From: Prochlorococcus sp. AG-363-B04
GTDB lineage: Bacteria; Cyanobacteriota; Cyanobacteriia; PCC-6307; Cyanobiaceae
NCBI GenBank assembly: GCA_003278465.1
Contig: QCFC01000001.1
Coordinates: forward strand, 51,886 to 115,885
DNA length: 64,000 bases
Direction of reading: 5' to 3'
Below, piece by piece: positions 25,029-43,809 of the stretch. The stretch's first letter is position 1. Each line of letters begins with the position of its first letter. A model generated the notes under the pieces. The model saw only the letters and a program-made list of their open reading frames with translations, was not told the DNA's origin and ran no database searches. A program made the position numbers and the translations under genes.

Positions 25029-26258
25029 ATGGATTCGTCATGGGCTTCAAGTTCTTTAGGTATCACTATGCCAAAAGGGTTCCTAGCGACAGGTATTCGA
25101 GCAGGATTAAAAGCCTCAGGAAAACCCGACTTGGCTCTTTTGTTAGCTCCTGAAGATGCTATTTGTTCAGGTACTTTTACTAGATCAGTCTCAAGAGCCG
25201 CATGTGTAGATCTTTCTGCTGCGCGTTTGCAAGAGCGTGCTGGAAAGGTTCGTGCAGTCTTAATTAATTCTGGACAGGCTAATGCGTGTACAGGAGATCT
25301 AGGCTTGATAGATAGTCAACGTGCTACAGAGGCTCTTGCTGATCGCCTTGGTTTGCTATCTGAGGAAGTATTAATTTGCTCAACCGGAATAATTGGCGAA
25401 CCAATTGATATGCAGAATCTTCTTAAATCTATTGATCCATTAGTAGTCTCGCTCAGCAGACAAGGGGGTGATGCTGCTGCAACTGCAATCCTTACAACTG
25501 ATTTAGTTGAGAAGCAAGTCTCATTAGAAGCGGATCTTGGTGGCCGTAGGGTTTGTATTGGTGGAATGGCAAAAGGATCAGGGATGATTCATCCCGAAAT
25601 GGCAACAATGCTTGCTTTCTTGACATGTGATGTAGGTGTTTCGTTTGACAAGTGGGAGGCGATGGTTAAAAGAGTTGTTGCAAATTCTTTTAATGCAATC
25701 ACAGTTGATGGAGATACAAGCACTAATGATTCTTTTCTTGCTTTTGCAGCTGGAGACCCTCTTGAAGATGCGTATTTGGATGATTTAGAGGTAGGGCTCA
25801 GAAAAGCAACTCAGCATCTTGCAAAAGCTATAGCTCGTGATGGCGAAGGTGCTACATGTTTATTGGAAATAAAAGTCATAGGTACTTCCAGTGATAATGA
25901 AGCGCAGCAAATTGCCCGTACTATTTGCAGTTCCTCGCTTGTCAAGACTGCAGTACATGGTCATGATCCAAACTGGGGCCGCATCATCGCAGCCGCTGGC
26001 AGAGCAGGCATTCCTTTTTGTTTAGAATCTGTTGAGCTTTTGTTAGGTCCTTACAAATTAATGGCTGCTGGAAAACCGCTAAAGTTTGATAGAGAGGCAG
26101 CATCAAATTATATAAAAAAATGCAAAATATCTGATAAATTTTTTAATAATAAAGTTGATTTTTGCTTGAAAGTTGGTGACGGATCTGGATTAGGTATAGC
26201 TTGGGGATGTGATTTGTCTGATCAATATATACGTATCAATGCCGATTATACTACTTGA
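25029..26258 (+). CDS. argJ: Arginine biosynthesis bifunctional protein ArgJ
   Basis: ArgJ transfers the acetyl group from N-acetylornithine to glutamate (and can make N-acetylglutamate from acetyl-CoA). The self-cleavage site is visible (KGSGMIHPEMATMLAFLTCD, cleavage before the Thr of ATML). ITVDGDTSTNDSF and VHGHDPNWGRIIAAAGRAG are also present. The C-terminus is RINADYTT. I start at the ATG at 25029; an upstream in-frame ATG at 24999 adds ten unlikely residues. The last seven codons form the left attachment site of an integrative element. They read GAT TAT ACT ACT TGA at the end, while two further copies of the argJ tail lie at 32280-32300 and 43783-43809 with other synonymous codons. The present 3' end is therefore probably element-derived. 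Confidence 0.96.
   Translation: MDSSWASSSLGITMPKGFLATGIRAGLKASGKPDLALLLAPEDAICSGTFTRSVSRAACVDLSAARLQERAGKVRAVLINSGQANACTGDLGLIDSQRATEALADRLGLLSEEVLICSTGIIGEPIDMQNLLKSIDPLVVSLSRQGGDAAATAILTTDLVEKQVSLEADLGGRRVCIGGMAKGSGMIHPEMATMLAFLTCDVGVSFDKWEAMVKRVVANSFNAITVDGDTSTNDSFLAFAAGDPLEDAYLDDLEVGLRKATQHLAKAIARDGEGATCLLEIKVIGTSSDNEAQQIARTICSSSLVKTAVHGHDPNWGRIIAAAGRAGIPFCLESVELLLGPYKLMAAGKPLKFDREAASNYIKKCKISDKFFNNKVDFCLKVGDGSGLGIAWGCDLSDQYIRINADYTT
26232..26258 (+). repeat. attL: argJ 3' end, left attachment site of element 1
   Basis: CGTATCAATGCCGA (26232-26245) is identical to 43783-43796. The following bases differ only at silent positions and at the stop codon, so both encode RINADYTT. The AATGCCGA core (26238-26245) is common to all three copies. 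The right half is inferred to have come from the element. Confidence 0.85.
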
Positions 26259-26261
26259 TGA

Positions 26262-26348
26262 GTGTGATTATAGTAAAAGTCCCATGATAACTGGATAAAT
26301 CACCCCTTACTAATACACTACATGGGGTGGTGTGATTATTGTGTGATT
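26262..26348 (+). repeat. Element 1 left arm-type repeats (GTGTGATTAT)
   Basis: Copies of GTGTGATTAT lie at 26262-26271 and 26330-26339, with a shorter GTGTGATT at 26341-26348. The pair at 26330-26348 recurs with one mismatch in 19 bases at 32195-32213, at the other end of the element. A 12-bp repeat TAATACACTACA (26311-26322) also recurs at 32070-32081. Such repeats flanking an att core look like arm-binding sites of a tyrosine integrase. Confidence 0.75.
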
Positions 26349-26384
26349 TGGATATACTACAAATAACCATGATTCCTATGGCTA

Positions 26385-27773
26385 ATGCCTCGTGAAGGTA
26401 AAGGTAAATGGGTTAAAGACAAGATTCTTGTATTGCCTCCCTATGAGGATTGCTATGTCTATAAAAGACCGGGCTCAAATACATATCAATACTTTCTTGC
26501 AATAGAAGGTGAAGGTGCTGAAAGAAAAACTACAAAGACAACCAATCTGGATATAGCCAAGAAGGTTGCATTAGACAGAAAATTAGAAGTAATGTCCCGC
26601 AAAAAGCAGGGATTAAAAGCAAGAAGAGTTAAAAAGTTGTTTGACTTTATTGATGAATACCTTGAAGAGGAATCTAAAAGAATCGCTGATTACAATAAAC
26701 CTGGCTTCATTACCTTTGAGACATACAGGGGTAAAAGATACCATTTGGATAGATTTAAGATATTTTTAACCAGCAAACAAGGTAGGAATATACGTCTTGA
26801 AGATTTAGATTATGTAAAAATAAAAGATTACCCTGTGTGGAGGACTATCAAGAGTGATGATAATCCTAAACCACCCAAAACTAATCAATCTATTAATGCT
26901 GAATTAACAACTATAAGAGCTTATTTTGCGTACCTTGAGGATAAGGGATATATCTCCAGACAACCAACATTCAAGAAATTGCAGAGAGAATCCTTAAGGA
27001 ATAACAGAAGAGATTATCTGAATGTAAAAGAATATATGCAAACTATTAATACCTTAAGAGCCTGGAGTAATAAACAAAATCTTACGCCTACCCAATCATA
27101 TAATAGAAGATTGTGTTATAACAGCATCCTCATCATGTCTAATAGTTTGATGAGGATAGGAGAATTGAAAGGATTAAGATGGATGGATTTAGAAGTTAAT
27201 CCTAACTTATCTAAAGACGACCAGAAAATAGGACATTTAATTAGGATTAGAAAGGAGAATACTAAAACAGGACAATCCCGAACAATTCAAAGTCCCACCG
27301 TTAAAAGATTTAATGCTATTAGAGAATTATGTGATATACCTAAAGTTAGGGGCTCTTCATTTCCACATATACCTCCTGAATATAAAAGTAGATATATCTT
27401 CCACATCTATAATCATCCAGAGACAAAGATTGGTACCAATAGTTGGGATAGAATATGGAAGGAGATAAAAGAGCTTTGTGCTAATAGATATTGGAATATG
27501 AAAAACATCACATGGTATTCCTTCAGACATACAGGAATATCATTTTCTGTGAGTAGGGGAGTCCCACTATTATTCTTAAGTCGTAATGCAGGGACGGGAT
27601 TAAAGTATATTCAAGATGTGTATTATCATCATGAGAGTGAAAGTAAGGCTACTTGGGATACTCTCAACCAGAATAGAGTTTTCTATGATGAGCTACACAA
27701 GAAAAGAGATGATACCCTCATAGATTTTGAAGAGTTAGTAGATATTGTAGATAAAGGAAAAGAGACTCGGTAG
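26385..27773 (+). CDS. Tyrosine recombinase (integrase) of element 1
   Basis: The 462-residue protein is homologous over its full length to the integrase at 32415-33758. Shared blocks include a family-specific N-terminus (YVYKRPGSNTYQYFL), a core-binding domain (TNQSINAELTTIRAYFAYLE) and the catalytic domain. Arg257 lies in LMRIGELKGLRW, Arg381 in WYSFRHTGIS, and the likely nucleophile Tyr413 or Tyr414 in DVYYHHES. The first His of the usual HxxR box is replaced by Tyr378 (YSFRH), and the second His/Trp position is not obvious; both hold for the sister integrase. It lies just inside attL and probably mediates insertion at argJ. No promoter is obvious, and read-through from argJ is possible. 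Confidence 0.92.
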   Translation: MPREGKGKWVKDKILVLPPYEDCYVYKRPGSNTYQYFLAIEGEGAERKTTKTTNLDIAKKVALDRKLEVMSRKKQGLKARRVKKLFDFIDEYLEEESKRIADYNKPGFITFETYRGKRYHLDRFKIFLTSKQGRNIRLEDLDYVKIKDYPVWRTIKSDDNPKPPKTNQSINAELTTIRAYFAYLEDKGYISRQPTFKKLQRESLRNNRRDYLNVKEYMQTINTLRAWSNKQNLTPTQSYNRRLCYNSILIMSNSLMRIGELKGLRWMDLEVNPNLSKDDQKIGHLIRIRKENTKTGQSRTIQSPTVKRFNAIRELCDIPKVRGSSFPHIPPEYKSRYIFHIYNHPETKIGTNSWDRIWKEIKELCANRYWNMKNITWYSFRHTGISFSVSRGVPLLFLSRNAGTGLKYIQDVYYHHESESKATWDTLNQNRVFYDELHKKRDDTLIDFEELVDIVDKGKETR

Positions 27774-27800
27774 ATTCCTTAAATGTATATCTGGTAATCC

Positions 27801-27830
27801 TGTAGGACATGCCGCTGCATTCATGACCGC
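27801..27830 (-). repeat. 30-bp dispersed repeat, copy 1
   Basis: Bases 27801-27830 match 30791-30820 at 27 of 30 positions. The core on the minus strand is GCGGTCATGAA, four variable bases, then GCGGCATGTCC with small differences. This copy is downstream of the stop codon of the 66-aa gene at 27839-28039. Copy 2 lies at the 3' end of another minus-strand gene and is translated there as RGHEGSGMS. Confidence 0.7.
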
Positions 27831-27838
27831 AGATATTA

Positions 27839-28039
27839 CTAATCAATAGAATCCAGTAAATCGGCCATTAACTTAATCCATTCCTTTGCATTATACCGTT
27901 TCCCACTTTGATATATCTGTCTTAATTTTTGGAATGCTTTAGTGAGTTTAGACGTACTTTCTCTTAATTCTTTCCTTTCTCCAGATGTGGGAAACTTCCG
28001 ATAATTATTATCAAACTCACTATATGTCTTGGTATTCAT
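27839..28039 (-). CDS. Small hypothetical protein, 66 aa (element 1)
   Basis: A 66-residue, charged, probably helical protein containing ERKELRESTSKLTKAFQKLR and ending in WIKLMADLLDSID. No known motif is seen. Its ATG overlaps the stop codon of the upstream 52-aa gene (ATGA arrangement at 28036-28039), a strong sign that both are translated. The 30-bp dispersed repeat follows its stop codon. Function unknown. Confidence 0.6.
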   Translation of the reverse strand: MNTKTYSEFDNNYRKFPTSGERKELRESTSKLTKAFQKLRQIYQSGKRYNAKEWIKLMADLLDSID

Positions 28040-28194
28040 TTTCTAAACCAATCCTTATTAGGGTTTGATTTAATTAATGCAGTATCCTTTTTTACATGAT
28101 ACTCAAGGTATTCTAATACACTACTGAAAGGACTCCTTGCAAGAATCTTATCAATAGAATCAGCCATAGGCTTGTTGTATGGAATATTAGGCAT
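28036..28194 (-). CDS. Small hypothetical protein, 52 aa (element 1)
   Basis: The minus-strand ATG at 28194 opens a 52-residue reading frame starting MPNIPYNKPMADSIDKIL and ending NPNKDWFRK. Its TGA overlaps the ATG of the next gene by the ATGA pattern, so translational coupling is likely. No family is recognised. A copy of the repeat word TAATACACTAC, also found at both element ends, lies inside it at 28114-28124. Confidence 0.5.
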   Translation of the reverse strand: MPNIPYNKPMADSIDKILARSPFSSVLEYLEYHVKKDTALIKSNPNKDWFRK

Positions 28195-28241
28195 GTTATA
28201 AAAGTCCTCTGAATAGTAGTTTTAAATAATAGATTCTTCGT

Positions 28242-28409
28242 TCATAAGGTTATTAATCCATACTCCTTCCTGATTAAGTCCTTATGTAATTGGCTGTAAT
28301 TCTTACCATGATGATTCATTAATTTATCTTCCATCATTAGTAATCGTTCTACTTCATATTCTCCATATGAAACTTGTCTTACTCTTGGTAGGGTGTTGTA
28401 GTGAGCCAT
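28242..28409 (-). CDS. SYG...QLHK small protein, 55 aa (element 1 copy)
   Basis: The minus-strand ATG at 28409 opens a 55-residue frame. Its central part, SYGEYEVERLLMMEDKLMNH then YSQLHKDLIRKEY, aligns with the protein at 34375-34545 in element 2 (SYGRHEERVLTMEDYLMDHY then RSQLHKVLVRERY). Conservation across two otherwise diverged elements shows that this is a real gene family. The compact helical look suggests a small DNA-binding or protein-binding factor, but I cannot assign a function. Confidence 0.68.
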   Translation of the reverse strand: MAHYNTLPRVRQVSYGEYEVERLLMMEDKLMNHHGKNYSQLHKDLIRKEYGLITL

Positions 28410-28711
28410 AGTAGTGTTGAGTTAGTGTTGTGAATATAAATACTAAAGATTCTATTGAATAACTTTTTCTTCGTACCACGCGACCTTAAAGGACAATAAA
28501 GAGTATGATTTAAAAACATATTAATCAATAGTATTTAGATAAATAATCATGTTATCTACCATACAAACCCCTTTAGGACTTTTCTAAAGGGGCTTAATAA
28601 TGAATAAACTCATCTGCAATACTATCTATAATAACTCAACATTAAATCATGAGTTATATTTACAATCAGAAACATTTATGGTATGATACTTATTCAAGTT
28701 AAGTTATCCAT
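28410..28711. other. Noncoding region of element 1 with hairpin
   Basis: The 302 bases between the divergent genes at 28242-28409 and 28712-29149 are very A+T-rich. A perfect 9-bp stem with a 7-base loop (CCCCTTTAG at 28568-28576 with CTAAAGGGG at 28584-28592) could be a terminator or operator. A 28-codon frame at 28600-28686 is too short and unsupported to call. Promoters for both flanking genes should be here. Confidence 0.45.
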
Positions 28712-29149
28712 ATGAATTACATGTATAAGCATTCTTGGGATAATACCCATGAGGATTTACTGAAGTCCAGTAATCATAAAACCTATACATTCTCAAGTGA
28801 TATTTATAAGGAAGAGCCCTTTTTTCAGAAGATATTAGGGATGTATGGTGCAAAACCATACAGAAGGAAAGTTTTTAACAGAGAAGCCCATAGAGGTAAA
28901 TGTCCTGCATGCAATCATACTTGTGGATTCTATCTAACAACAGATAGACAAGATACGTACATGGTTGTCTGTGCTAATCCTGATTGTAGATATCCTAATG
29001 GTAAAAGGAGTATGTTATTACATGAGATTATTATGCATTATGGTAGTAGTGGATTAATTAAAGAGTGGAGAGATGCAAGATATACAAAGGAATTAGCATA
29101 TGGGTGGAAAGGAATCCGACCAGAGAATAGGAAGACGAAAAAATCCTGA
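28712..29149 (+). CDS. Zinc-ribbon protein, 145 aa (element 1 copy)
   Basis: The 145-residue protein contains a putative zinc ribbon with Cys64, Cys67, Cys87 and Cys92 (CPAC ... CANPDC), a CX2C-X19-CX4C pattern. It is followed by LLHEIIMHYGSSGLIKEWRD. The protein at 33761-34105 in element 2 has exactly the same cysteine spacing and the same following block (VLHEVIKRYGGSEMFERWRK). The ribbon resembles the CHC2-like zinc fingers of primases and phage proteins only in general form. A nucleic-acid-binding role is inferred. The ATG at 28712 has a near-adjacent second start at 28721. Confidence 0.72.
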   Translation: MNYMYKHSWDNTHEDLLKSSNHKTYTFSSDIYKEEPFFQKILGMYGAKPYRRKVFNREAHRGKCPACNHTCGFYLTTDRQDTYMVVCANPDCRYPNGKRSMLLHEIIMHYGSSGLIKEWRDARYTKELAYGWKGIRPENRKTKKS

Positions 29150-29191
29150 TACCATAATTTTTTACTGCAAAAATATTTTCATATAATCTGA

Positions 29192-29226
29192 TATAACTCT
29201 CGCTTTTTAGGAATGTTGTAGGTTAG
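29192..29226 (-). promoter_or_regulatory. 35-bp noncoding motif shared by both elements (copy 1)
   Basis: Read on the minus strand, this stretch begins CTAACCTACAACA and ends GCGAGAGTTATA. It matches 34742-34776 of element 2 at 27 of 35 positions, including the first 13 in a row. It lies in the gap between the zinc-ribbon gene and the 3' end of the methyltransferase gene. A TATA-like end could be a promoter -10, but no downstream gene on that strand fits, so the role is open. Confidence 0.6.
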
Positions 29227-29249
29227 CTTCTTTGAAAAAGTTTAACTTA

Positions 29250-30752
29250 CTAAAACAACACCCATGTTAGTTGAGTTTCATGAGATTTATGTGTGAATCT
29301 AAACTCATAATTCCGTTTAATACTGCATACCAAATGAGGGTTATTTAATTCCACATGCATGGTATCCCACAAAGTAAATCCATGTTTCTTGGCTAATGAT
29401 TGGAATGAATACTGCATATCATGGATTCCATTTTCAGCATCTCTTGCCGTACCTATTACCATCATTACTGGATGAAAGATTTTCTCCTTGTAATTTGACT
29501 TCTTGATTACTCTTGCAAGATTCTTAAACATCTCATCTATTTTACTATCAAAATCTTCAATACTCATGTTGCATAAATCTCTGGGGTCGGTTGAGTATGG
29601 CTCTGCTTTTAGGTAATAGGGAGGACTTGAAAATACAGCATCTACAAATCTACCTTCACCTTCAAAATCTTTCATTTCACATCCACATCCCTTCAGTAAT
29701 TCAAAATCACCATCAGACACATCTATATGCTTCTGTATAGCATCTGTAGTTAATTCATATGCTTTATCATCAATAGTGAATCCAATAAACTTTCTATTGA
29801 GATGTAATGCTGTGAATGCAGTCGTACCTCTACCTGAAAATGGGTCGCATATTAAATCTCCAACATTAGTAAAATAATCAATAGCAAATCTTGCATGCTC
29901 TGGATTCATCTGATGCAATTTGATTTCTGTTTCTCCAAATCTTAAGGAGCCTTTCTTGACTCTTAAATCCTCATCATGATTCACCAAATCACATAATGCT
30001 TTTAACTCATCATTAACCCTGTTAAACTTCATCATACTCTTTGCATATTGTCCCCACCGTTCCTTGAATGAGAAATCTAAATCCTCTTGTCTATGGAGTT
30101 TAAAATCCTCCATTTTTGCTTGATAAAACGCCTGCTTCCAACTCCTACACTTTCCACTTATTAGTAGATTGCATACTAATATTTGAATATCATCTGATTC
30201 AGCAGATAACTTTACTAACTCTTCAAAACAATTAGCCCAATCTGTTTCCACCAATAAATCTTTTACTTCAGGATTTAGTTTTGATATTTGTTTTCTCTTC
30301 TGATAACTCCTCTTACTTAATCCTACTCCCGCTGCAACATCTTCAATAGTAAGTTTCTCATCACTCATATTATTCTGATTATCACCCCTTTGATATAACA
30401 ACCCTAATTCTTTTAAAAGCTCTTCTCTTTTTAATATATGGTCGGCAGTTTCAATATGATTGAGCTCATTCCTTTTTAGATTTTCATCTATCTCAACCAA
30501 CTCACTCACGCTTTTATCTACATCTTTTACTATGGATGGTATCTTATCTAATCCAAGTTGTTGATAAGCAAGATATCTGTGATATCCGGCCAATAGAATA
30601 TTGTTTCTATCAATTACTACTGGAGAAATTAATCCCACTTGAGATATTGACTCTGCAATTTCCCGTACTTTTGCATCTGATGGAGTCCTTAATCTAAACT
30701 TTACTACCACATCTGATAATGGAGTTTCTACCACCTGCATAGATGCACCCAT
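29250..30752 (-). CDS. ParB-domain DNA methyltransferase
   Basis: The 500-residue protein joins an N-terminal ParB/Srx-type domain (about 1-115, with LLAGYHRYLAYQQLG around residues 53-67), a helix-turn-helix-like segment (TIEDVAAGVGLSKRSYQ, about 135-151) and a C-terminal methyltransferase. The SAM-binding motif is DPFSGRGTT (303-311) and the catalytic motif is SSPPYY (375-380). The SPPY signature fits an amino-methyltransferase making N4-methylcytosine or N6-methyladenine. No restriction nuclease is adjacent, so it is probably a solitary methylase protecting the element or altering host regulation. It is the last gene of a minus-strand operon with a recombinase. Confidence 0.88.
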   Translation of the reverse strand: MGASMQVVETPLSDVVVKFRLRTPSDAKVREIAESISQVGLISPVVIDRNNILLAGYHRYLAYQQLGLDKIPSIVKDVDKSVSELVEIDENLKRNELNHIETADHILKREELLKELGLLYQRGDNQNNMSDEKLTIEDVAAGVGLSKRSYQKRKQISKLNPEVKDLLVETDWANCFEELVKLSAESDDIQILVCNLLISGKCRSWKQAFYQAKMEDFKLHRQEDLDFSFKERWGQYAKSMMKFNRVNDELKALCDLVNHDEDLRVKKGSLRFGETEIKLHQMNPEHARFAIDYFTNVGDLICDPFSGRGTTAFTALHLNRKFIGFTIDDKAYELTTDAIQKHIDVSDGDFELLKGCGCEMKDFEGEGRFVDAVFSSPPYYLKAEPYSTDPRDLCNMSIEDFDSKIDEMFKNLARVIKKSNYKEKIFHPVMMVIGTARDAENGIHDMQYSFQSLAKKHGFTLWDTMHVELNNPHLVCSIKRNYEFRFTHKSHETQLTWVLF

Positions 30753-30779
30753 AGTCAGATTAGCTATCTAAACTGCATA

Positions 30780-30995
30780 TTAGCTAATATTGTCGGACAT
30801 GCCGCTTCCTTCATGACCGCGTAATAAATGTTGAGGAATTACCATGTTGTCTTCCATATCAAACTCATTAAATATCCATTCTCCGTACTCAAGCAAAATA
30901 TGATACCTATTTTCCGCATCAAGATACTTCATTCTTTCAAGTAGATGCACTACTGATGAATTAATAGCTCTTTTAACATCATCATCCTTATTCAT
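30780..30995 (-). CDS. Small hypothetical protein, 71 aa (element 1)
   Basis: I chose the ATG at 30995 (MNKDDDVKRAINSS) because a GGAG lies about seven bases upstream; an upstream ATG at 31016 would add seven residues. The protein is acidic with one helical core (LLERMKYLDAENRYHILLEY) and no known motif. Its C-terminus is RGHEGSGMSDNIS, encoded by the second copy of the 30-bp dispersed repeat. It overlaps the upstream WRQ gene by 8 bases. Confidence 0.6.
   Translation of the reverse strand: MNKDDDVKRAINSSVVHLLERMKYLDAENRYHILLEYGEWIFNEFDMEDNMVIPQHLLRGHEGSGMSDNIS
30791..30820 (-). repeat. 30-bp dispersed repeat, copy 2 (translated)
   Basis: This copy matches 27801-27830 at 27 of 30 bases. Here it forms the 3' end of the coding frame at 30780-30995 and is translated as RGHEGSGMSD. 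The flanks also share some bases. Two copies near gene 3' ends suggest a mobile or selected short repeat. Confidence 0.7.
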
Positions 30996-31227
30996 TATCA
31001 TTCTCCATTTCATCAAAAAGTTTTAGGGAGTCCTTCAGATTTGAAGAGCAATCAGGTGGAGGAGGTGGAGGTTTTATACCATTCATCCTTTCCCACTCCC
31101 TATGCATAGCCCCTAACATCACCGCTTGCATCCAACTTTTCGGTCCTTCTTTTAATAGTTGGATTTGTTTTTGATTGAGCCTGGCTTTTGTATTCAGATA
31201 ATCCTGTCTCCAGTTTTTATCATCCAT
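30988..31227 (-). CDS. WRQ-motif small protein, 79 aa (element 1 copy)
   Basis: The 79-residue protein starts MDDKNWRQDYLNTKARLNQK and continues QIQLLKEGPKSWMQAV, then a proline-rich stretch. It aligns with the 88-aa protein at 35586-35852 in element 2 (DWRQELLDSAQFNEKEEKLL, then LGALYTRWKKLKGIK). In each element it lies downstream of a recombinase gene in the same operon: a tyrosine recombinase here, a serine recombinase in element 2. That suggests an accessory role to element recombination, which is inference. Only one base separates it from the recombinase stop. Confidence 0.7.
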   Translation of the reverse strand: MDDKNWRQDYLNTKARLNQKQIQLLKEGPKSWMQAVMLGAMHREWERMNGIKPPPPPPDCSSNLKDSLKLFDEMENDNE

Positions 31228-31228
31228 A

Positions 31229-31822
31229 TCACACCTCCTCCTCTATAAGTTTCCGATACTTCAGATGGGTATCATGCTTATCAGAGTCAAGATATTGCTG
31301 TAGAGAATGAAGATTCTTATGTCCTGATATATCCATTATTTCACGTACATTCCAATTCTTTTGCATCAGATGAGTCAATCTACTTCTCCTAAAACTATGG
31401 GAAGTAGCTCCTTCAATTCCTATCCAGTCAAATGTCTTCCTGAATATCTCATCCACAGATTGATTAGAAATCTGTTTTGCACCTGGAGCATGTTGTGTAT
31501 TTCTGCTTGAGGTGAAGAATACAAAATCATCATCCTCCAGAGAATTGGATGATACCCACCGCCTCAAGTCATCCATCAACTTGTTAGGTATGGGTATCTG
31601 ACGAGTCTCTTTTGTCTTGGTAGATGACTTCTCAAGGGTTATTAACCCCTCCTGAAGGTTGATGTTTCTTACCTTGATAGATGTTGTCTCTCCAACCCTC
31701 CCTGCAAGGAAATACATGGTTTGAGCCAGTAATGCATATTTCTCTGGTAGGTGGGATAGGAATCCATCTAACTGGTGTCTGGTGAGGCAGGCAGATTTGC
31801 CGTGTCTGTTGGATTTAGCCAT
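31229..31822 (-). CDS. Small tyrosine recombinase, catalytic domain only
   Basis: At 197 residues this is much shorter than the integrases and resembles FimB-size recombinases that lack a separate arm-binding domain. The catalytic residues are complete and canonical: Arg42 (LAGRVGETTSIKVRNINL), His142 and Arg145 (SHSFRRSRLTHLMQ), His168 (ISGHKNLHSL) and Tyr177 (QQYLDSD). It is first in a minus-strand operon leading to WRQ, the 71-aa unknown and the methyltransferase. It may act as an invertase, an excision factor or a dimer-resolution enzyme. No target inverted repeats are proven. Confidence 0.87.
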   Translation of the reverse strand: MAKSNRHGKSACLTRHQLDGFLSHLPEKYALLAQTMYFLAGRVGETTSIKVRNINLQEGLITLEKSSTKTKETRQIPIPNKLMDDLRRWVSSNSLEDDDFVFFTSSRNTQHAPGAKQISNQSVDEIFRKTFDWIGIEGATSHSFRRSRLTHLMQKNWNVREIMDISGHKNLHSLQQYLDSDKHDTHLKYRKLIEEEV

Positions 31823-32279: not shown

Positions 32280-32300
32280 AATGCCGACTACACGACCTAA
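32280..32300 (+). repeat. attM: second copy of argJ 3' end, junction of the two elements
   Basis: AAT GCC GAC TAC ACG ACC TAA encodes NADYTT-stop with no gene upstream of it. It shares AATGCCGACTACAC with 43789-43802 and AATGCCGA with the real argJ end. Upstream of AAT the bases no longer match argJ. The natural reading is an element 1 / element 2 hybrid att site. Confidence 0.83.
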
Positions 32301-32304
32301 GTTT

Positions 32305-32389: not shown

Positions 32390-32414
32390 GATTATCACGT
32401 TTTAGTCCTTTAGG

Positions 32415-35557: not shown

Positions 35558-35585
35558 AAAATCTTTGCGATTAATCCACAAGATT

Positions 35586-36799: not shown

Positions 36800-37018
36800 C
36801 AATCGACCTCTAAAACCTTGCCTGTATACTAACTCATTTTTATACAGTATTTCTATACAAGCAAACACTAGTCATATCGGTCCAAGTGAAGGTGTACAAA
36901 ATATTTTGCTTTTTTATACCTCTAATCAGGGAATCAAGTTTGTGCTTGTTATGTTTTTAACTTTGAAAAGCGCAGATTACTATTACTAGTCAAACTAGAA
37001 AAAACTGTTTAAGAACTT

Positions 37019-38575
37019 GTGCCTGATCAAGGTTTCAAACAAATTCTTTGGGCGTCAGCGGACAAACTACGAAACCAGATGGATGCGGCGGAATATAAGC
37101 ATCTGGTACTTGGACTGATATTTCTTAAATACATTTCAGATACTTTTGCTGAACATCAGAAGAAAGTTTTAAAGCAAGTATCTGATCCTTCTTCTGATTT
37201 TTATTTGGGTGATGATCCCTTAGATCATTCAAGTGCGCTTGAGGAAAGAGATTTCTACAAACAAGATAATGTCTTTTGGGTTCCTACAGAAGCGAGATGG
37301 GAATCTATTAGAGCGAAGGCGAAGCAACCAGATATAGGACAAATCATTGATTCTGCTTTAGTTGTCATCGAGAACGAGAACAAATCTCTAAGAAACAAGT
37401 TGGATCGTCGTTTTGGTCGTGCCCAGATGGAACCTGGTCGAATGGGTGAGTTGGTTGACTTGATATCTACTATTGGTTTTGGAGGACAAGAGCGCAGTGC
37501 AACAGATGTTCTTGGTGAGGTCTACGAATATTTCTTAGGTCAGTTCGCTACTGCTGAAGGGAAGAAGGGAGGGCAGTTCTATACACCTGCGCATGTGGTG
37601 AAAACATTGGTTGCTGTTTTAGCACCAGATAAAGGTCGTGTTTATGACCCTTGCTGCGGTTCAGGTGGAATGTTTGTTCAGAGCGAACGGTTTGTAGAAG
37701 CACATGGCGGAAAAAGAGATCATCTTTCTCTCTACGGGCAAGAAAGTAATCCGACGACTTGGCGACTAGCGGTAATGAATCTTGCTATTCGTGGTCTTTC
37801 TGGAGATTTAGGAAAAGACCCTGCAGATTCTTTTGGACGAGATCAACACCCTGATCAAAAGTTCGATTACATACTTGCTAATCCACCATTCAATATTTCT
37901 GATTGGGGTGGTGAAAAATATGACAGTGATCCTCGTTGGGTTTATGGAAGACCACCAGTAGGAAATGCCAACTATGCATGGTTGCAACATATGCTTTGGA
38001 AACTTCGACCAGGTGGTCAAGCAGGTGTGGTGCTGGCAAATGGATCAATGAGTTCCAACACCTCTGGTGAAGGAAAGATTCGTGAAGCGATGGTACGAGG
38101 TGATGTCGTTGAGGCAATGGTTGCTTTACCTGGACAGTTGTTCGCAAATACTCAGATTCAAGTTTGTTTATGGTTTTTGACTAACGATAAAACTCAAAGA
38201 GGAAGAGATAGAAGAGGTGAAACTTTGTTCATTGATGCTCGTCAAATGGGTACGATGGTCTCCAGAAAAGAAAGGGTTCTTACTGAAGGAGATATCTCGA
38301 AAATTGCTGAGACTGTTGATTGTTGGCGTAATGCAAAAGATTATCAAGATATTTCCGGTTACTGCTACAACTCACAGTTTGAGGAAATTGAAAAGAACAA
38401 TTTTGAACTAACTCCTGGACGTTATGTAGGTGCACAAGATGAAGAAGATGATGGCGAATCTTTTGAGGAAAAGATGAAAAGACTTACATATTTACTCAAA
38501 GAGCAACAAGAAGAAGGTGTGAAATTAGATAAGAAGATTGCTGAGAATTTGAAGAGGATTGGTTATGGACAGTGA
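37019..38575 (+). CDS. hsdM: Type I restriction-modification DNA methyltransferase subunit
   Basis: HsdM methylates adenine in the bipartite target recognised by HsdS and is part of the restriction complex. The 518-residue protein has the N-terminal helical HsdM domain (FKQILWASADKLRNQMDAAE), the SAM motif DPCCGSGG (210-217) and the catalytic NPPF (288-291, in ANPPFNISDWGGEKYDS). The start appears to be GTG at 37019 (MPDQGFKQI). It is the first gene of the operon, with a ~220-base divergent promoter region toward the serine recombinase. Confidence 0.95.
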   Translation: MPDQGFKQILWASADKLRNQMDAAEYKHLVLGLIFLKYISDTFAEHQKKVLKQVSDPSSDFYLGDDPLDHSSALEERDFYKQDNVFWVPTEARWESIRAKAKQPDIGQIIDSALVVIENENKSLRNKLDRRFGRAQMEPGRMGELVDLISTIGFGGQERSATDVLGEVYEYFLGQFATAEGKKGGQFYTPAHVVKTLVAVLAPDKGRVYDPCCGSGGMFVQSERFVEAHGGKRDHLSLYGQESNPTTWRLAVMNLAIRGLSGDLGKDPADSFGRDQHPDQKFDYILANPPFNISDWGGEKYDSDPRWVYGRPPVGNANYAWLQHMLWKLRPGGQAGVVLANGSMSSNTSGEGKIREAMVRGDVVEAMVALPGQLFANTQIQVCLWFLTNDKTQRGRDRRGETLFIDARQMGTMVSRKERVLTEGDISKIAETVDCWRNAKDYQDISGYCYNSQFEEIEKNNFELTPGRYVGAQDEEDDGESFEEKMKRLTYLLKEQQEEGVKLDKKIAENLKRIGYGQ

Positions 38576-39878
38576 ATGGGTTTCTAAAAAAGCAAGTGAA
38601 TACTGCATTTCGGTAAGAGATGGAACTCATGATTCACCTAAAGAGGTTTCCCAAGGAGGAAAAAACTTAGTCACTTCTCGCCATATAAAAGGAGGGATTC
38701 TTGATCTGGAAAAGTCTTATAAAATTTCTATTCAGGATTTCAATGAGATCAATAAGAGAAGCAAGGTTCATCAATGGGATGTGCTTTTTTCAATGATTGG
38801 GACTATAGGTGAGACCCTTTTAGTAAAAGACTCTGAACCAGATTTTGCTATCAAGAATGTTGGTCTTTTCAAGTGTAAAAACGAATTAGAGAGTCAATGG
38901 TTGTATTACTATCTCAATTCTCCAAATGTAAAAAGAGAAATTCACTCTCTTTCAAGAGGCACTACGCAACAGTATGTCCCTTTAGGTTCTCTTAGAGATT
39001 TGGAAATAGTTTATCCAGTTTCAAATTTATATAAAAAAGTAGTTGTAGAGTTTCTCACGAATATCGATGAAAAGATTGAACTAAACCGAAAGACTAATGA
39101 AACTCTTGAAGGAATAGCGAAGGCACTCTTCAAATCTTGGTTTATTGATTTTGATCCAATAAGAGCAAAAGCAGAAGGACGTTCAACTGGTTTATCCAAA
39201 GAGATCAGTAAGTTATTTCCAGACTCATTTGAAGATTCTGAATTAGGTGAAATTCCTAGTGGGTGGTCAATAGAATCTTTCACATCGCACTTCAATGTTC
39301 TTGGTGGTGGAACTCCAAAGACTTCCATAAATGAGTATTGGAATGGAGGAGTGCAATGGTTTTCAGTCGTAGATGCTCCTGTTGAATCTGATTGTTGGGT
39401 GATGAAAACAGAGAGAACAATCACTGAAGAAGGTTTGAAAAATTGTTCATCAGCACTATTCAGAAAGGGTACAACGATTATTTCCGCGCGTGGAACAGTT
39501 GGGAAGGTATGTCTTGTAGGAGATGAAATGGCAATGAATCAATCCTGCTATGCCTTGCAGGCAAAAAAAACTAATGAGGATGTCTATTGCTATTACTCCA
39601 CAAGAAGCATTGTGGAGATACTTCGAGGAAGATCTCATGGTTCTGTTTTTGATACGATTACCCGTAAAACTCTTCAAGGAATTGAATTTTGTTTCGCTTG
39701 CAAAAATGTAATTAATGCCTTTGAGGAAAGTGCAAAACCATTGATGGAAAAGATCAGGTTGAATGTAAATGAATCTATGACTCTTGGTGGAATTAGAGAT
39801 GTTCTTCTTCCTAAACTCATCTCTGGTGAACTAAGAGTCTCAGATGCTGAAAAGATGCTTGAGGAGGTAGGCATCTGA
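38565..39878 (+). CDS. hsdS: Type I restriction-modification specificity subunit
   Basis: HsdS chooses the DNA target. The ~437-residue protein has two target-recognition domains (about 1-150 and 215-350), each followed by a conserved helical spacer: IDEKIELNRKTNETLEGIAK, then SWFIDFDPIRAKAEG, and near the end PLMEKIRLNVNESMTLGGIR. The second domain shows GGGTPKTSINEYWNGGVQWF, typical of type I specificity subunits. I chose the ATG at 38565; a TTG at 38559 is also possible. It overlaps hsdM by 11 bases and hsdR by 1. The target sequence cannot be read from the protein. Confidence 0.93.
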   Translation: MDSEWVSKKASEYCISVRDGTHDSPKEVSQGGKNLVTSRHIKGGILDLEKSYKISIQDFNEINKRSKVHQWDVLFSMIGTIGETLLVKDSEPDFAIKNVGLFKCKNELESQWLYYYLNSPNVKREIHSLSRGTTQQYVPLGSLRDLEIVYPVSNLYKKVVVEFLTNIDEKIELNRKTNETLEGIAKALFKSWFIDFDPIRAKAEGRSTGLSKEISKLFPDSFEDSELGEIPSGWSIESFTSHFNVLGGGTPKTSINEYWNGGVQWFSVVDAPVESDCWVMKTERTITEEGLKNCSSALFRKGTTIISARGTVGKVCLVGDEMAMNQSCYALQAKKTNEDVYCYYSTRSIVEILRGRSHGSVFDTITRKTLQGIEFCFACKNVINAFEESAKPLMEKIRLNVNESMTLGGIRDVLLPKLISGELRVSDAEKMLEEVGI

Positions 39879-42800
39879 TGTCTCTAATTACCGAAGATCT
39901 TCTTGAACAACAGTGCCTTGATTGGTTCAAGGAAATGGGATATTCCTATGTCTTCGGTCCTGACCTTGCTCCTGATGGAGACTCTCCAGAGCGGGATGAT
40001 TTTCGGCAAGTCATCCTTCCAGGACGTCTTCGATCATCACTGCAAAAACTCAATCCAAAGGTCCCACCTTCCACTATTGATTCAGCAATATCTCAACTAA
40101 CCAACCCAAATATTCCAGAACTTTTAGCAAGTAATCGTCAGGTCCATCGTCTGATGACTCAAGGTGTACCTGTCACTTATATGGATGGGAATCAACAGAT
40201 CGGAATTCGATTGAAGGTTATTGGATTTGATGATCCTGCCTCTAATGATTGGTTGGTTGTAAATCAATTAGCGGTTAAAGGAGATAAGCACAATCGTCGA
40301 CCTGATGTAGTCGTTTACTTAAACGGATTGCCTATTGGAGTCATTGAATTAAAAAACCCTGCTGATGAAAAGGCAGATATCTGGAAAGCATTCAATCAAC
40401 TTCAGACATATAAGAACGACATTCCAGATCTTTTTGATCCCAATGTTCTTTTGATTATTAGTGATGGAACTCAGGCAAGAGTGGGTTCTCTTAGTGCTAA
40501 TGAAGAACGCTTTTTGAGATGGAGAACAATCAAAGATGAAAAGGACCTTGATCCTCTTGGACAGTTCCGGGAACTAGAAACTCTTGTTCGAGGTCTGTTT
40601 GATAAAGATCGTTTGCTCGATTTTATTCGCTCTTTTTGCCTCTTTGAAGAAGACAAATCAATCATTAAAAAGATTGCTGCTTATCACCAATTCCATGCAG
40701 TTCGAGCAGCAACTGAACAAGTCGTTAAAGCAAGTCAATCAGATGGGGATAAAAAAGGTGGCGTTGTTTGGCATACCCAAGGAGCAGGTAAAAGCATCGA
40801 AATGGCATGCCTTGCGGGCAAGTTGCTGACTGACCCTCGCCTTGAGAATCCAACTCTTGTGATGGTTACTGATCGACAGGATTTAGATGGTCAGTTGTTT
40901 GGCGTATTTGCTGGAGCAGGGGATTTATTAGGAGAGAACCCACAACAAGCAAATACCAGGCAGGAACTTAGAGACCTTTTAGGGAATCGACCAAGTGGTG
41001 GAATCATCTTTACGACGATTCAGAAATTCGCTTTAGAACCTGGCGAGCAATCATTCCCTGTGCTCAGCAATCGCCGCAATGTAGTGGTGATTTGCGATGA
41101 GGCGCATCGCACTCAATATGGTTTCAAGGCACGACTTGATATCAAAACTGGAACGATTAAATACGGTCTTGCCAAGACCCTGAGAGATGCTCTTCCAGAT
41201 GCAACATTCCTTGCCTTCACTGGAACTCCAATCTCTAAAGACGATCGGGATACCCAAGCAGTTTTTGGAAATTATGTCTCTATCTACGACATACAACAGG
41301 CAGTAGAAGATGGAGCAACAGTTCCGATCTACTACGAATCAAGGCAAGCAAAACTTGAAATCAAGAAGGAGTTCTTACCGACAGTTGATCAAAAGGTTGA
41401 TGAGATTTTTGAAGAGGAAGATGATATTCCTGCAGAAGAAAAAGCAAAGACTCGCTGGGCAGCATTAGAAGCATTAGTTGGTGCCCAACCTCGATTGCAA
41501 GAAGTCGCTCAAGATTTAATTGCACATTTCGAGAAGAGGTCAAAGACACAACCAGGCAAAGCAATGGTTGTTGGTATGAGTCGAGAGATATGTGCTCGCC
41601 TCTATAAAGAGATCATCAATATCCGTCCTGATTGGCATAACTCTGATCCTGCCAAAGGAGCAATCAAAGTTGTCATGACTGCATCTGCTTCAGACAAAGC
41701 ATTACTCCAAGAACATCACACCAGTAAGCAGCAAAAGAAAGATCTGGAAAAGAGATTCAAAGACCCAAGCGACCCATTGAAAATCGTTTTAGTACGGGAC
41801 ATGTGGTTAACAGGATTTGATGCTCCTTGTCTTGCCACTCTTTATGTCGACAAACCAATGAGGGGAGCGAATCTTGCTCAAGCAATTGCAAGAGTGAATC
41901 GCGTTTTTAAAGACAAACCAGGTGGACTAGTTGTTGACTACATCGGTATTGCACCACAACTCAAAGAAGCGCTGGCGGATTACACCGCAGGGAGAGGTAA
42001 ACCAACTCTTGATGTTGAGGAAGCGCTAAGAATCCTCAAAGAGAAAATTCAGATCGCCAAAGATATCCTGCATCCAATCGATTGGAGCAATTTCAAAAAA
42101 CCAGGGAAAGCATTAGAACTACTCCCAATTTGTTTAGACCACGTATTGGGGATGCCTGATGGACGTCCGCGTTTTTGCGACACAGTACTTTCAGCAACTA
42201 AAGCATTTGCTCTTTGTGGGACTTTGGATGAAGCGTTAGCACTCAATGAAGAAGTTGCTTTCTTGCAAGCAATTCGTGCTCCACTCATCAAAGGAGAAGG
42301 GGATACTCCACCAGGGAAGAAAGGCGATACCGATTTTGAATTACGCCAATTGCTATCAGAAGCATTAGTTGGGAAAGGAGTGACAGATGTCTTCAAGGTT
42401 GCTGGTTTAGATAAACCTGACATCAGCATCTTGTCCGATCAATTCTTGGCAGAGGTCAGCAAGATCCCTCAAAAGAATCTTGCGGTTGAATTGCTCCAAC
42501 GTCTTTTAAAGGAAGAAGTTTCATCACGCTTTAAAACCAATGTTGTGAAGCAAAGGAAATTTAGTGACTTGCTTCAAGCGTCATTGAAAAAATATGCAAA
42601 TAGAACGATTGAGGCAGCACAAGTCATTGAAGAACTCATACGCATGGCAAAAGAATTCAGAGAGGAGGCAACCAAGGTTGATTCACTTGGTTTAACACCT
42701 CCAGAGATCGCCTTTTATGACGCACTTGCGAATAATCAATCTGCTCAAGAACTGATGGGAGACAAAGTGTTGGTTTCTATGGCAAGAGAACTTGCAAAGA

Positions 42801-43003
42801 AACTCAGAAATAATCTCACTATTGATTGGCAATACAAAGAAAACGTACGCGCCGGATTGCGTAACATGATCAGGTCACTTCTAAAGCGATATAAGTACCC
42901 TCCCGATCAAGAAAAAACTGCAATTGAATTAGTTCTTGTTCAAGCAGAAACCTTATCTGAAGACTGGATAGAGACAGAAACAGAAAATGCAACCACCTCT
43001 TAA
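39878..43003 (+). CDS. hsdR: Type I restriction endonuclease/translocase subunit
   Basis: HsdR is the motor and nuclease of the type I complex. The 1041-residue protein has an N-terminal PD-(D/E)XK-type nuclease (RRPDVVVYLNGLPIGVIELK, Asp143, Glu157, Lys159). The SF2 translocase follows, with Walker A QGAGKS (301-306), DEAH (407-410), FTGTPIS and the later helicase motifs QAIARVNRVFKDKPGG. A C-terminal helical region binds the methylase core. All key residues seem intact, so restriction should be active. It overlaps hsdS by one base and the following small gene by 17. Confidence 0.95.
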   Translation: MSLITEDLLEQQCLDWFKEMGYSYVFGPDLAPDGDSPERDDFRQVILPGRLRSSLQKLNPKVPPSTIDSAISQLTNPNIPELLASNRQVHRLMTQGVPVTYMDGNQQIGIRLKVIGFDDPASNDWLVVNQLAVKGDKHNRRPDVVVYLNGLPIGVIELKNPADEKADIWKAFNQLQTYKNDIPDLFDPNVLLIISDGTQARVGSLSANEERFLRWRTIKDEKDLDPLGQFRELETLVRGLFDKDRLLDFIRSFCLFEEDKSIIKKIAAYHQFHAVRAATEQVVKASQSDGDKKGGVVWHTQGAGKSIEMACLAGKLLTDPRLENPTLVMVTDRQDLDGQLFGVFAGAGDLLGENPQQANTRQELRDLLGNRPSGGIIFTTIQKFALEPGEQSFPVLSNRRNVVVICDEAHRTQYGFKARLDIKTGTIKYGLAKTLRDALPDATFLAFTGTPISKDDRDTQAVFGNYVSIYDIQQAVEDGATVPIYYESRQAKLEIKKEFLPTVDQKVDEIFEEEDDIPAEEKAKTRWAALEALVGAQPRLQEVAQDLIAHFEKRSKTQPGKAMVVGMSREICARLYKEIINIRPDWHNSDPAKGAIKVVMTASASDKALLQEHHTSKQQKKDLEKRFKDPSDPLKIVLVRDMWLTGFDAPCLATLYVDKPMRGANLAQAIARVNRVFKDKPGGLVVDYIGIAPQLKEALADYTAGRGKPTLDVEEALRILKEKIQIAKDILHPIDWSNFKKPGKALELLPICLDHVLGMPDGRPRFCDTVLSATKAFALCGTLDEALALNEEVAFLQAIRAPLIKGEGDTPPGKKGDTDFELRQLLSEALVGKGVTDVFKVAGLDKPDISILSDQFLAEVSKIPQKNLAVELLQRLLKEEVSSRFKTNVVKQRKFSDLLQASLKKYANRTIEAAQVIEELIRMAKEFREEATKVDSLGLTPPEIAFYDALANNQSAQELMGDKVLVSMARELAKKLRNNLTIDWQYKENVRAGLRNMIRSLLKRYKYPPDQEKTAIELVLVQAETLSEDWIETETENATTS

Positions 43004-43199
43004 TGACGAAGAATTAGCGAGACTTTATCCCCATCTCACTCCTACAGAAAGGATTGAATTGGAGGTATGGCATCGAAGTTGGATTACCAAAATGTTTATG
43101 GGAGAGGCAACTCAAGAGGAATATGATGCTGCAATTCCTCCTTATCCAGATCCGCACCATCCAGAGAAAGAAGAAGATGAGGATGAGGAAGAAGAATAA
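42987..43199 (+). CDS. Small acidic protein in the hsd operon, 70 aa
   Basis: The 70-residue protein starts inside the 3' end of hsdR (17-base overlap) and ends in a strongly acidic tail (HPEKEEDEDEEEE). The front part (LNDEELARLYPHLTPTERIE) looks helical. Its stop overlaps the next ATG by one base (TAATG). The overlaps on both sides support translation. An acidic tail could mimic DNA or bind the restriction complex, but that is speculation; no family is recognised. Confidence 0.6.
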   Translation: MQPPLNDEELARLYPHLTPTERIELEVWHRSWITKMFMGEATQEEYDAAIPPYPDPHHPEKEEDEDEEEE

Positions 43200-43525
43200 T
43201 GACGACTCCAATCGCTAACGAAGATCTTCTCTTAGAAAAGATCCCTAATCCTGAAGGTGAATCTTCCGATTATCAAGAAACATGGGCGGAATTTGCACTC
43301 ACAATGAATGGTTATGAAGTCTGTGGGGACTTTGAATCTTGTTCTGATTTAGCAAGTCAAATAATTAAAGAACCCAAGAATGCTTCCTTAACTGAACTTC
43401 GTTGTGCATTGTTTTTTTTGCAGCGCCGTCATCGTTGGAATGAATATTCAGATCCTGCAGATGAAAACATAGTTCATCTCCTCAAGTTCATAAGAAGAAA
43501 AGTACAAGATCGTGAAATCAAATAA
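43199..43525 (+). CDS. Hypothetical protein at the end of the hsd operon, 108 aa
   Basis: The 108-residue protein has DYQETWAEFALTMNGYEVCG, DFESCSDLASQIIKEP and ELRCALFFLQRRHRWNEYSD, and looks like a small all-helical domain. It overlaps the previous stop codon and is the last gene before the right terminal repeats of element 2. Its place in the hsd operon suggests a role linked to restriction or its control, but no known domain is evident. Confidence 0.62.
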   Translation: MTTPIANEDLLLEKIPNPEGESSDYQETWAEFALTMNGYEVCGDFESCSDLASQIIKEPKNASLTELRCALFFLQRRHRWNEYSDPADENIVHLLKFIRRKVQDREIK

Positions 43526-43782
43526 ATATGTTTTTGGATAAGTCAGACTACAAACGTCTAACAAATTGCGACCATATTGCGACAATATGCCTAATACGCA
43601 CCTTTCCTCATCTCTTGAAATCCCTTTACCTCGTTAGAGTGGGGAAGCGAGTTCAAGACCTATTTAAAAAACTGCGACTAAAATACAGCGAGTTGCGACT
43701 AAAATGCGACTAAAATGGTCTTAAAAGATCTTAGTATCTATAGGGGTTTAGAAAGAGATTTATAGTCTAAATCCAGAAGATG
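43526..43782. other. Noncoding right end of element 2
   Basis: The 257 bases after the hsd operon carry the right arm-type repeats and no convincing gene. A frame at 43528-43713 overlaps the repeats and is rejected. The word TAGTCTAAAT at 43763-43772, just before attR, repeats 32353-32362 at the left end. Confidence 0.6.
43567..43714 (+). repeat. Element 2 right arm-type repeats (TGCGACTAA)
   Basis: Full copies are at 43673-43680 (TGCGACTA), 43694-43702 and 43705-43714 (TGCGACTAAA); partial TGCGAC copies are near 43567 and 43579. The close pair with about 11-base spacing mirrors 32370-32389 at the left end. Confidence 0.75.
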
Positions 43783-43809
43783 CGTATCAATGCCGACTAC
43801 ACAACTTAA
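43783..43809 (+). repeat. attR: third copy of argJ 3' end, right border of the island
   Basis: CGT ATC AAT GCC GAC TAC ACA ACT TAA encodes RINADYTT-stop, the exact ArgJ C-terminus, 17.5 kb from the gene. The first 14 bases equal those in argJ. The right part is probably the original chromosomal argJ end, displaced when the elements entered. Confidence 0.85.

What the first reader, a model, noticed from the sequence alone, without database searches (positions are those of the whole stretch)
26232..43809. Two related elements inserted in tandem in the 3' end of argJ
The argJ C-terminal coding sequence (NADYTT-stop) occurs three times on the same strand: 26238-26258, 32280-32300 and 43789-43809. 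Two homologous tyrosine recombinases start 126 bases (26385) and 115 bases (32415) after the first and second tail-stop codons, both in the direction of argJ. That is the geometry of tandem site-specific integration, with the integrase next to its own attP half. No tRNA is at any border, unlike most tRNA-targeting elements of marine picocyanobacteria. A protein-gene 3' end in arginine synthesis is an unusual attachment site.
Basis: partly seen in the sequence, partly recalled or inferred. Interest (0 to 1): 0.92.

Follow-up and report, generated by a model that had tools for sequence, protein, structure and literature searches.

The report
Tandem mobile elements rebuilding argJ's end
Two related DNA elements, one carrying a predicted restriction-modification system, sit head to tail at the end of the arginine gene argJ in a genome of the Prochlorococcus family, each bounded by copies of the gene's last codons, and were likely inserted by their own integrases at a site that many relatives appear to use too.

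Summary
The argJ tail occurs three times on the + strand (26238, 32280, 43789; 0.03 expected), and two 45%-identical tyrosine recombinases start 126 and 114 bp after the first two. The segments are two related elements of 6.0 and 11.5 kb sharing four homologous genes; they carry a ParB-methyltransferase and a predicted type I restriction-modification system. Three relatives keep the empty order coaE-argJ-cobalamin riboswitch-hupE. (2) Of 33 close integrases, 32 lie beside an argJ tail and one has no readable flank; they form two clades of opposite polarity, 10 and 22. (3) Each window element has 7-8 direct repeats, partly paired 11 bp apart, around the core: mostly TGTGATTA in element 1, TGCGACTA in element 2, whose eight sites all have C where a relative has T. 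These look like integrase arm sites. Excision and transfer were not shown. Protein-gene targets and tandem accretion are known; my paper searches (listings) showed no argJ-specific integrase family.

The parts
25068..26258 (+). argJ, target gene; its last codons are read through tail copy 1
   Evidence: NCBIfam ArgJ equivalog 461.8 bits; frame ends NADYTT-stop
26235..26258 (+). left junction (attL), tail copy 1
26259..32279 (+). element 1, 6.0 kb between tail copies 1 and 2
26385..27773 (+). Int1, tyrosine recombinase of element 1
   Evidence: Pfam PF00589 21.2 bits, under its 27.1 cut-off; phrog_1 integrase 9.5e-23; tree clade A
26263..26349 (+). arm-type repeats of element 1, integrase side: 26263, 26331, 26342 (TGTGATTA, TGTGATTA, TGTGATTT)
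28242..28409 (-). small protein shared with element 2 (34366-34545 +)
   Evidence: 53% identity over 45 aa, E 2.8e-9
28712..29149 (+). Cys-rich, zinc-finger-like protein shared with element 2
   Evidence: 30% identity over 105 aa, E 4.2e-14; no Pfam, PHROG or phage-record match
29250..30752 (-). ParB N-domain fused to N6/N4 DNA methyltransferase (cargo)
   Evidence: PF02195 and PF01555; relatives in G215, G335 and L089
30988..31227 (-). small protein shared with element 2; relatives in cyanophages
   Evidence: phrog_16908; 43 phage records
31229..31822 (-). 197-aa catalytic-domain-only tyrosine recombinase
   Evidence: PF00589 92 bits; relatives in G215, G335
32103..32214 (+). arm-type repeats of element 1, distal side: 32103, 32174, 32196, 32207 (TGTGATTA)
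32277..32300 (+). middle junction, tail copy 2 (element 1 left / element 2 right)
32301..43788 (+). element 2, 11.5 kb between tail copies 2 and 3
32305..32388 (+). arm-type repeats of element 2, integrase side: 32305, 32370, 32381 (TGCGACTA)
32415..33758 (+). Int2, tyrosine recombinase of element 2
   Evidence: Pfam PF00589 22.5 bits, under its 27.1 cut-off; phrog_1 9.3e-30; model with N-domain of 3 strands plus helix, helical domain, catalytic domain, pLDDT 76, pTM 0.53; Foldseek matches XerH, Tn1549 Int, Cre at TM about 0.3-0.45
33761..34105 (-). Cys-rich, zinc-finger-like protein, homologue of 28712-29149
34366..34545 (+). small protein, homologue of 28242-28409
35586..35852 (-). small protein, homologue of 30988-31227
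   Evidence: phrog_16908; 57 phage records, named Synechococcus, Prochlorococcus, Cyanophage or Marine
36221..36868 (-). serine resolvase/invertase-like recombinase
   Evidence: PF00239; relatives in other argJ elements
37019..38575 (+). HsdM, type I modification subunit (cargo)
   Evidence: PF02384 347.6 bits
38559..39878 (+). HsdS, specificity subunit (cargo)
   Evidence: PF01420; PADLOC Specificity_I
39878..43003 (+). HsdR, type I restriction subunit (cargo)
   Evidence: PADLOC REase_I 1125 bits; TIGR00348
43567..43712 (+). arm-type repeats of element 2, distal side: 43567, 43578, 43673, 43694, 43705 (TGCGACCA, TGCGACAA, then TGCGACTA three times)
43786..43809 (+). right junction (attR), tail copy 3, displaced host end of argJ
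44003..44150 (+). cobalamin riboswitch ahead of hupE, native neighbour of argJ
   Evidence: RF00174 62.5 bits; same order in empty sites

Best explanation
Two related integrative elements lie head to tail between argJ and a displaced copy of its 3' end, and each was likely inserted there by its own tyrosine integrase. Inferred steps: the integrase likely binds the core inside the last argJ codons (ATCAATGCCGAYTAYACNAC) with its core-binding and catalytic domains, and the outlying direct repeats with its N-terminal domain. Recombination between attP (which would carry a copy of the argJ tail) and attB would swap the last argJ codons for synonymous ones, so that the ArgJ protein stays whole. Each insertion would leave a tail copy at the far end, itself a usable site, so that elements could pile up in tandem. 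Shown by sequence: three tails, an open argJ frame, two related elements, two different and largely uniform repeat sets, cargo that by homology is a type I restriction-modification system and a ParB-methyltransferase, and relatives with empty and differently filled sites.
For: Tails 3 against 0.03 expected. Same geometry (integrase on the tail's strand, 118-181 nt after it) in 10 of 10 clade-A integrases, two of them the window's; of the 33 closest integrases 32 have a tail adjacent and one has no readable flank (up to 2 mismatches allowed: 28 of 32 exact, L019, L032, L037 one, L016 two). Empty order coaE-argJ-riboswitch-hupE in L046, L064, L067. Elements 1 and 2 share four homologous ORFs. 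Arm motif TG[TC]GA[TC]N[AT]: 23 sites in 8 integrase-side flanks against a mean of 1.72 (max 6) in 300 shuffles, 30 in 7 distal flanks against 2.27 (max 7), none on the other strand; 17 pairs 11 bp apart against 0. In the window TGYGAYTAW occurs 18 times against 4.76 expected, 11 of them at the element ends. Integrase-side offsets +22, +87 to +90, +98 to +101 in 7 of 11 rows. Element 2 and G372 have eight sites at the same offsets within 1 bp, third base C in 8 of 8 and T in 8 of 8. The Int2 model has the three-domain build and recombinases as best folds. Codons at both window integrase junctions read NADYTT-stop; in L089 and L090 argJ ends NSEYTT and further tails copy that.
Against: No excised circle, no att recombination and no transfer was seen; mobility is inferred. 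Of the 11 rows, G271 lacks the +22 repeat, L089 has its outer pair at other offsets, L090 and the G013 remnant show one site each; G324's distal repeats (TGTGAT) do not match its integrase side (TGTGAC); G372 has a ninth match with no counterpart in element 2; G335's tail reads NADYHT. The motif was defined on the sequences it was then counted in, and 7 of 18 window matches of the short form lie elsewhere. No excisionase was identified. A+B together is supported by only 84/84. Several rows are near copies (G324, G372, G376; and pairs in clade B), so independent lineages are fewer than rows. Of 400 family genomes 137 gave no exact tail match. A crude sorting of 113 tails by their right flank left 66 unclassed.
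Confidence: 0.92

Rival explanations
1. One composite island came in at once (or by homologous recombination with a donor's argJ region) and the two elements no longer move on their own.
For: A tandem pair with related contents exists elsewhere (G335: an element 1 homologue followed by a segment with HsdM, HsdS, HsdR); tail-bounded segments without an integrase are common, 30 of 53.
Against: Both integrase genes are open and each window element keeps its own repeat set at both ends, as selection on two separate integrases would keep. An element 1 homologue also occurs with only two tails in its genome (G215).
Confidence: 0.25
2. The repeats are duplicated argJ ends from slippage or gene conversion, and the integrases are bystanders.
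For: Tails are short, and many tail-bounded segments hold no integrase.
Against: The tails bound segments of 0.6-12 kb; integrases sit at narrow distances and fixed polarity from tails in 32 of the 33 closest cases, with two clades splitting by polarity; phased repeats.
Confidence: 0.02
3. They are satellites of cyanophages that use argJ as their docking site.
For: Both elements carry a small protein (phrog_16908) whose matches in phage records are all named Synechococcus, Prochlorococcus, Cyanophage or Marine (57 and 43 records); sizes of 6-12 kb; no relaxase or structural domain among the 20 proteins scanned with Pfam. Tycheposons of the same hosts have been proposed as phage satellites (one passage of PMC11389934).
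Against: Five other element proteins tested (Int2, both Cys-rich proteins, the 55-aa protein, the ParB-methyltransferase) show no cyanophage among the records listed; no capsid, terminase or packaging domain; no element of this kind in the virome stretches read.
Confidence: 0.2

Closest known systems
ICESt3-type ICEs, IMEs and CIMEs at the 3' ends of fda, rpsI, rpmG, rplL (Streptococcus; PMC7563491, passages read)
   Same: Integration in the 3' end of a protein gene, tandem accretion of elements, integrase-less remnants bounded by att sites.
   Different: No relaxase or conjugation domain among 20 proteins scanned here; target is argJ; integrases of two polarities at one site; cyanobacterial hosts.
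Tycheposons of Prochlorococcus (passages of PMC10872708 and PMC11389934; the original paper was not found in the library)
   Same: Tyrosine-recombinase elements with cargo in the same organisms; 6.0 and 11.5 kb lie within the quoted 4-200 kb.
   Different: Described as bordered by one of seven tRNA genes; here no tRNA in the 64-kb window and the target is a protein gene; cargo is DNA modification/restriction rather than nutrient uptake.
dusA-associated integrase family (PMC4482086, search listing only)
   Same: An integrase family tied to one protein-coding gene in many genomes.
   Different: Targets the 5' end of dusA; no polarity split known to me.
Lambda-type integrase/attP architecture (recalled)
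   Same: N-terminal arm-binding-like domain, core site flanked by two sets of arm-type direct repeats.
   Different: Repeat sequence, spacing and number differ; no helper protein or excisionase identified.

Membership tests
Tyrosine-recombinase integrative element (site-specific) | Integrase gene next to an att junction | tested here: met
Tyrosine-recombinase integrative element (site-specific) | Direct repeats of the target at both borders, target gene kept whole | tested here: met
Tyrosine-recombinase integrative element (site-specific) | Empty target site in relatives | tested here: met
   L046, L064, L067
Tyrosine-recombinase integrative element (site-specific) | Excision and re-integration | not testable with these tools
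   needs reads or bench work
Tycheposon | Bordered by one of seven tRNA genes | tested here: not met
   0 tRNA in the window; borders are argJ tails
Tycheposon | Tyrosine recombinase, 4-200 kb | tested here: met
ICE / IME | Relaxase, coupling protein or type IV secretion genes | tested here: not met
   none among 20 proteins of the two elements scanned with Pfam; some further short ORFs were not scanned
CIME (cis-mobilizable remnant) | att-bounded, no integrase | tested here: not met
   both window elements keep an open integrase; 30 of 53 tail-bounded segments in the 40 loci read have none
Phage satellite | Packaging or helper-interference genes, induction by a helper phage | tested here: inconclusive
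   one shared protein with cyanophage relatives; no packaging domain among proteins scanned; induction not testable

The most novel reading that the evidence does not exclude
The argJ end of marine picocyanobacteria is an integron-like loading dock: a dedicated integrase family, split into two clades that read the same protein-coding att site in opposite polarity, builds arrays of tail-bounded modules (restriction systems, methyltransferases, unknowns), each module re-supplying the codons that keep ArgJ working, while private arm-site alphabets (TGTGATTA, TGTGATAA, TGTGACTA, TGCGACTA) let neighbours in one array be cut out independently. The integrases have followed argJ's own sequence drift from NADYTT to NSEYTT.
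Probability: 0.35. Interest if true: 0.85.

Novelty: new variant of a known kind. Interest (0 to 1): 0.64.

Why it matters
How Prochlorococcus and marine Synechococcus gain and lose genes, phage defence above all, is a long-standing question, and attention has gone to tRNA sites (recalled, and as quoted in PMC10872708). A protein-gene hotspot with an identifiable integrase family, a defined att core and readable arm sites gives a testable entry point, and two natural pairs (Int1 with TGTGATTA, Int2 with TGCGACTA) for arm-site specificity. It may also offer a conserved landing site in a group for which genetic tools are scarce (recalled).

Tried and rejected
Tandem duplication of argJ: rejected; in the 14 regions argJ matches at most one place each, only the tail recurs (in one search, G130/L109 has a second piece of 21 codons). 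tRNA or tmRNA target: none in the window. Phage or plasmid origin of Int2: the phage collection gives only partial Streptococcus integrase matches (43 records, under 60% identity, 58% of the query in the rows shown), plasmids none. Free elements in viromes: nine viral contigs carry the tail pattern, but the stretches read hold no match to argJ, the integrases or the other query proteins at E 0.01. Relatives in viral contigs by integrase: none confirmed in three scans. Profile search of PDB sequences: none. Own promoter for Int1: no sigma-70-like site in 26150-26450, and a terminator-like hairpin at 26314 overlaps an arm repeat; 32000-32480 has no promoter-like or terminator-like site on the + strand; so read-through from argJ stays open. 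Precise strand-exchange point: narrowed only loosely (G372 has GCA left of the element-type GACTACACGACC), so not claimed.
Full report
What is there. The window lies in an unnamed draft genome of 1,503,418 bases, 41 contigs, 77.88% complete, on one contig. Its family is that of Prochlorococcus: contigs of the family genomes G324, G376, G372 and G335 equal in length records titled Prochlorococcus sp. AG-402-P16, uncultured Prochlorococcus sp. AG-439-L12 and AH-324-J21, and Prochlorococcus sp. AG-311-D23. argJ (25068-26258) ends in AATGCCGATTATACTACTTGA. The same tail stands at 32280 and 43789, same strand. A 20-base core with up to 3 mismatches finds only these three in 64 kb, against a shuffle mean of 0.03.

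Two elements. Tails 1 and 2 are 6.0 kb apart, tails 2 and 3 11.5 kb. Each element opens with a tyrosine recombinase reading away from argJ; the two are 45% identical. The elements share four homologous ORFs: the integrase (44% in that comparison), a Cys-rich protein (30%), a 55/59-aa protein (53%) and a 79/88-aa protein (42%). So they are kin with different cargo: element 1 has a ParB-methyltransferase fusion and a 197-aa recombinase; element 2 has a resolvase-like protein and HsdM, HsdS, HsdR. No relaxase, capsid or terminase domain was found among 20 proteins scanned with Pfam; some further short ORFs were not scanned.

Empty sites. Of the 30 loci returned, three (L046, L064, L067) show coaE, argJ, tail, cobalamin riboswitch, hupE with no element between (in L064 the contig ends inside hupE). 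The other 27 show no hupE match in the stretch held (up to 1.5 kb past the tail). In the window the third tail is followed after 193 bp by the riboswitch and then hupE. In G152 (L100) two tail-bounded segments lie between argJ and riboswitch-hupE, as here.

A hotspot. The exact tail pattern occurs in 263 of 400 family genomes, the reversed control in none of the rows listed; 59 of 400 (the window's own included) hold two or more copies by my count of the listing (list length checked). The most are six in G330, on two contigs, and five on one contig in G074, G246 and G283. I did not check for all 59 that every copy lies near argJ; in G183 one copy is some 350 kb away. In 40 loci read, 53 tail-bounded segments were found: 18 with a full integrase of this family (4.7-12.2 kb), 5 with fragments, 30 with none (0.6-6.4 kb). 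Most of these loci were chosen because they hold several tails, so the numbers describe arrays, not prevalence. G195 has a segment with HsdM, HsdS and HsdR and no integrase of this family.

One integrase family, two polarities. Forty-one distinct ORFs of 300 aa or more matched the family profile at 1e-15. Of the 33 best (E up to 1e-83), 32 have a tail beside them (28 exact, three with one mismatch, one with two); the 33rd (L103) has only 2 nt of upstream sequence. Ten (type A, both window integrases included) have the tail on their own strand 118-181 nt upstream; 22 (type B) have it on the other strand at 134-298 nt, that is, they sit at the far end of the element and read back towards argJ. 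The 8 weaker matches (E from 6e-63) have none within 600 nt. On a tree of 40 rows type A is one clade (100/100), type B one clade (96/92), and A plus B stand together with 84/84; several rows are near copies. The 32 were all hits of integrase searches, not chosen by tail. In 242 genomes of the class, 7 matched at 1e-10, all of this family.

Arm sites. Flanking the core are direct repeats, all on one strand: element 1 TGTGATTA at +22, +90, -180, -109, -87, -76 and TGTGATTT at +101; element 2 TGCGACTA at +22, +87, +98, -119, -98, -87, with TGCGACCA at -225 and TGCGACAA at -214. Over 8 type-A elements the integrase side holds 23 sites (1.72 in shuffles, max 6); over 7 distal sides 30 (2.27, max 7); none on the other strand; 17 pairs stand exactly 11 bp apart (0 in 300 shuffles). 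Against its relative in G372, element 2 has the same eight positions within 1 bp, and the third base is C in all eight where G372 has T in all eight; G372 has one more match at -151. Such concerted change is what a change of binding preference in one protein would leave. That this protein is the integrase is inferred; the Int2 model has an N-terminal sheet of three strands with a helix (residues 24-76), a helical domain and a catalytic domain (mean pLDDT 76, pTM 0.53), and its matches in the PDB are XerH, Tn1549 integrase, Cre and other tyrosine recombinases, the best rows at TM-scores of about 0.3-0.45 by whole length.

ArgJ stays whole. In 7 of the 8 full type-A rows, the window's two included, the codons at the integrase junction read NADYTT-stop; G335 reads NADYHT-stop. 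Codon choice differs, as expected if the element brings its own end. In two Prochlorococcus genomes (L089, L090) argJ ends NSEYTT and further tails copy it (2 and 3 copies with at most one mismatch; a 3-mismatch match in L089 not counted), so att site and gene seem to have drifted together.

Against my reading. No excision was seen. G324's distal repeats do not match its integrase side, G271 lacks the +22 site, L090 and the G013 remnant show one site each in the 150 nt read. The virome scan found no such element. The repeat motif was drawn from the same sequences. A crude sorting of 113 distinct tails by right flank gave 19 A-like, 28 B-like and 66 unclassed.

Comparison. Tandem accretion at protein-gene 3' ends is known from Streptococcus (PMC7563491, passages: 33 two-element and 4 three-element islands in rpmG, rpsI, fda, rplL). 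Tycheposons, as quoted in PMC10872708 (passages), border one of seven tRNA genes, which fails here. On argJ as an integration site I saw listings only: two papers with argJ, integrase and genomic island, on Staphylococcus aureus and Rhodococcus; 20 listed of 188; all 10 with argJ and Prochlorococcus; 20 listed of 1,207, none of the 20 holding argJ. No title or abstract start among these describes argJ as an integration site; none of the argJ papers was opened, and most subscription papers are not held. PMC2784084 (passages) puts the putative site of siphovirus P-SS2 in non-coding DNA with pseudo-tRNA-Met genes, a different locus.

Noticed in passing
window 43813-43820: Just after tail 3 stands TGTGAGTA at +21, one base off the arm motif and next to where type-A elements have their first arm site; it may be the remnant of a third, lost element.
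   Followed up: partly
L099, L116, L102: In G108, G183 and G218 a further argJ tail lies beyond hupE, so that riboswitch and hupE themselves sit inside a tail-bounded segment.
   Followed up: no
L101 12399-18792: Type I restriction-modification genes (HsdM 78%, HsdR 76%, HsdS 34% to the window's) bounded by two argJ tails with no integrase of this family inside.
   Followed up: partly
window 36221-36868; L085 8473-9117: The resolvase-like gene of element 2 is 97% identical to one in the AG-402-P16 element, whose integrase is only 67% identical to Int2 and which shows no hsd match in the stretch read.
   Followed up: no
window 31229-31822: Catalytic-domain-only tyrosine recombinase of 197 aa kept in three element-1-type islands (window, G215, G335), role unknown.
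   Followed up: no
window 30988-31227 and 35586-35852: Small protein in both elements (phrog_16908) with matches in phage records only of cyanophages and marine viruses; that several are T4-like is recalled.
   Followed up: partly
L083 (G074): Five argJ tails within 4 kb; the four segments of 0.7-1.3 kb hold no integrase of this family: micro-elements.
   Followed up: partly
L090 8635-9820: argJ matches in two overlapping pieces in different frames in this draft genome, a frameshift or a sequencing error.
   Followed up: no
window 58076-58146: Cyano-1 RNA on the minus strand (50.3 bits).
   Followed up: no
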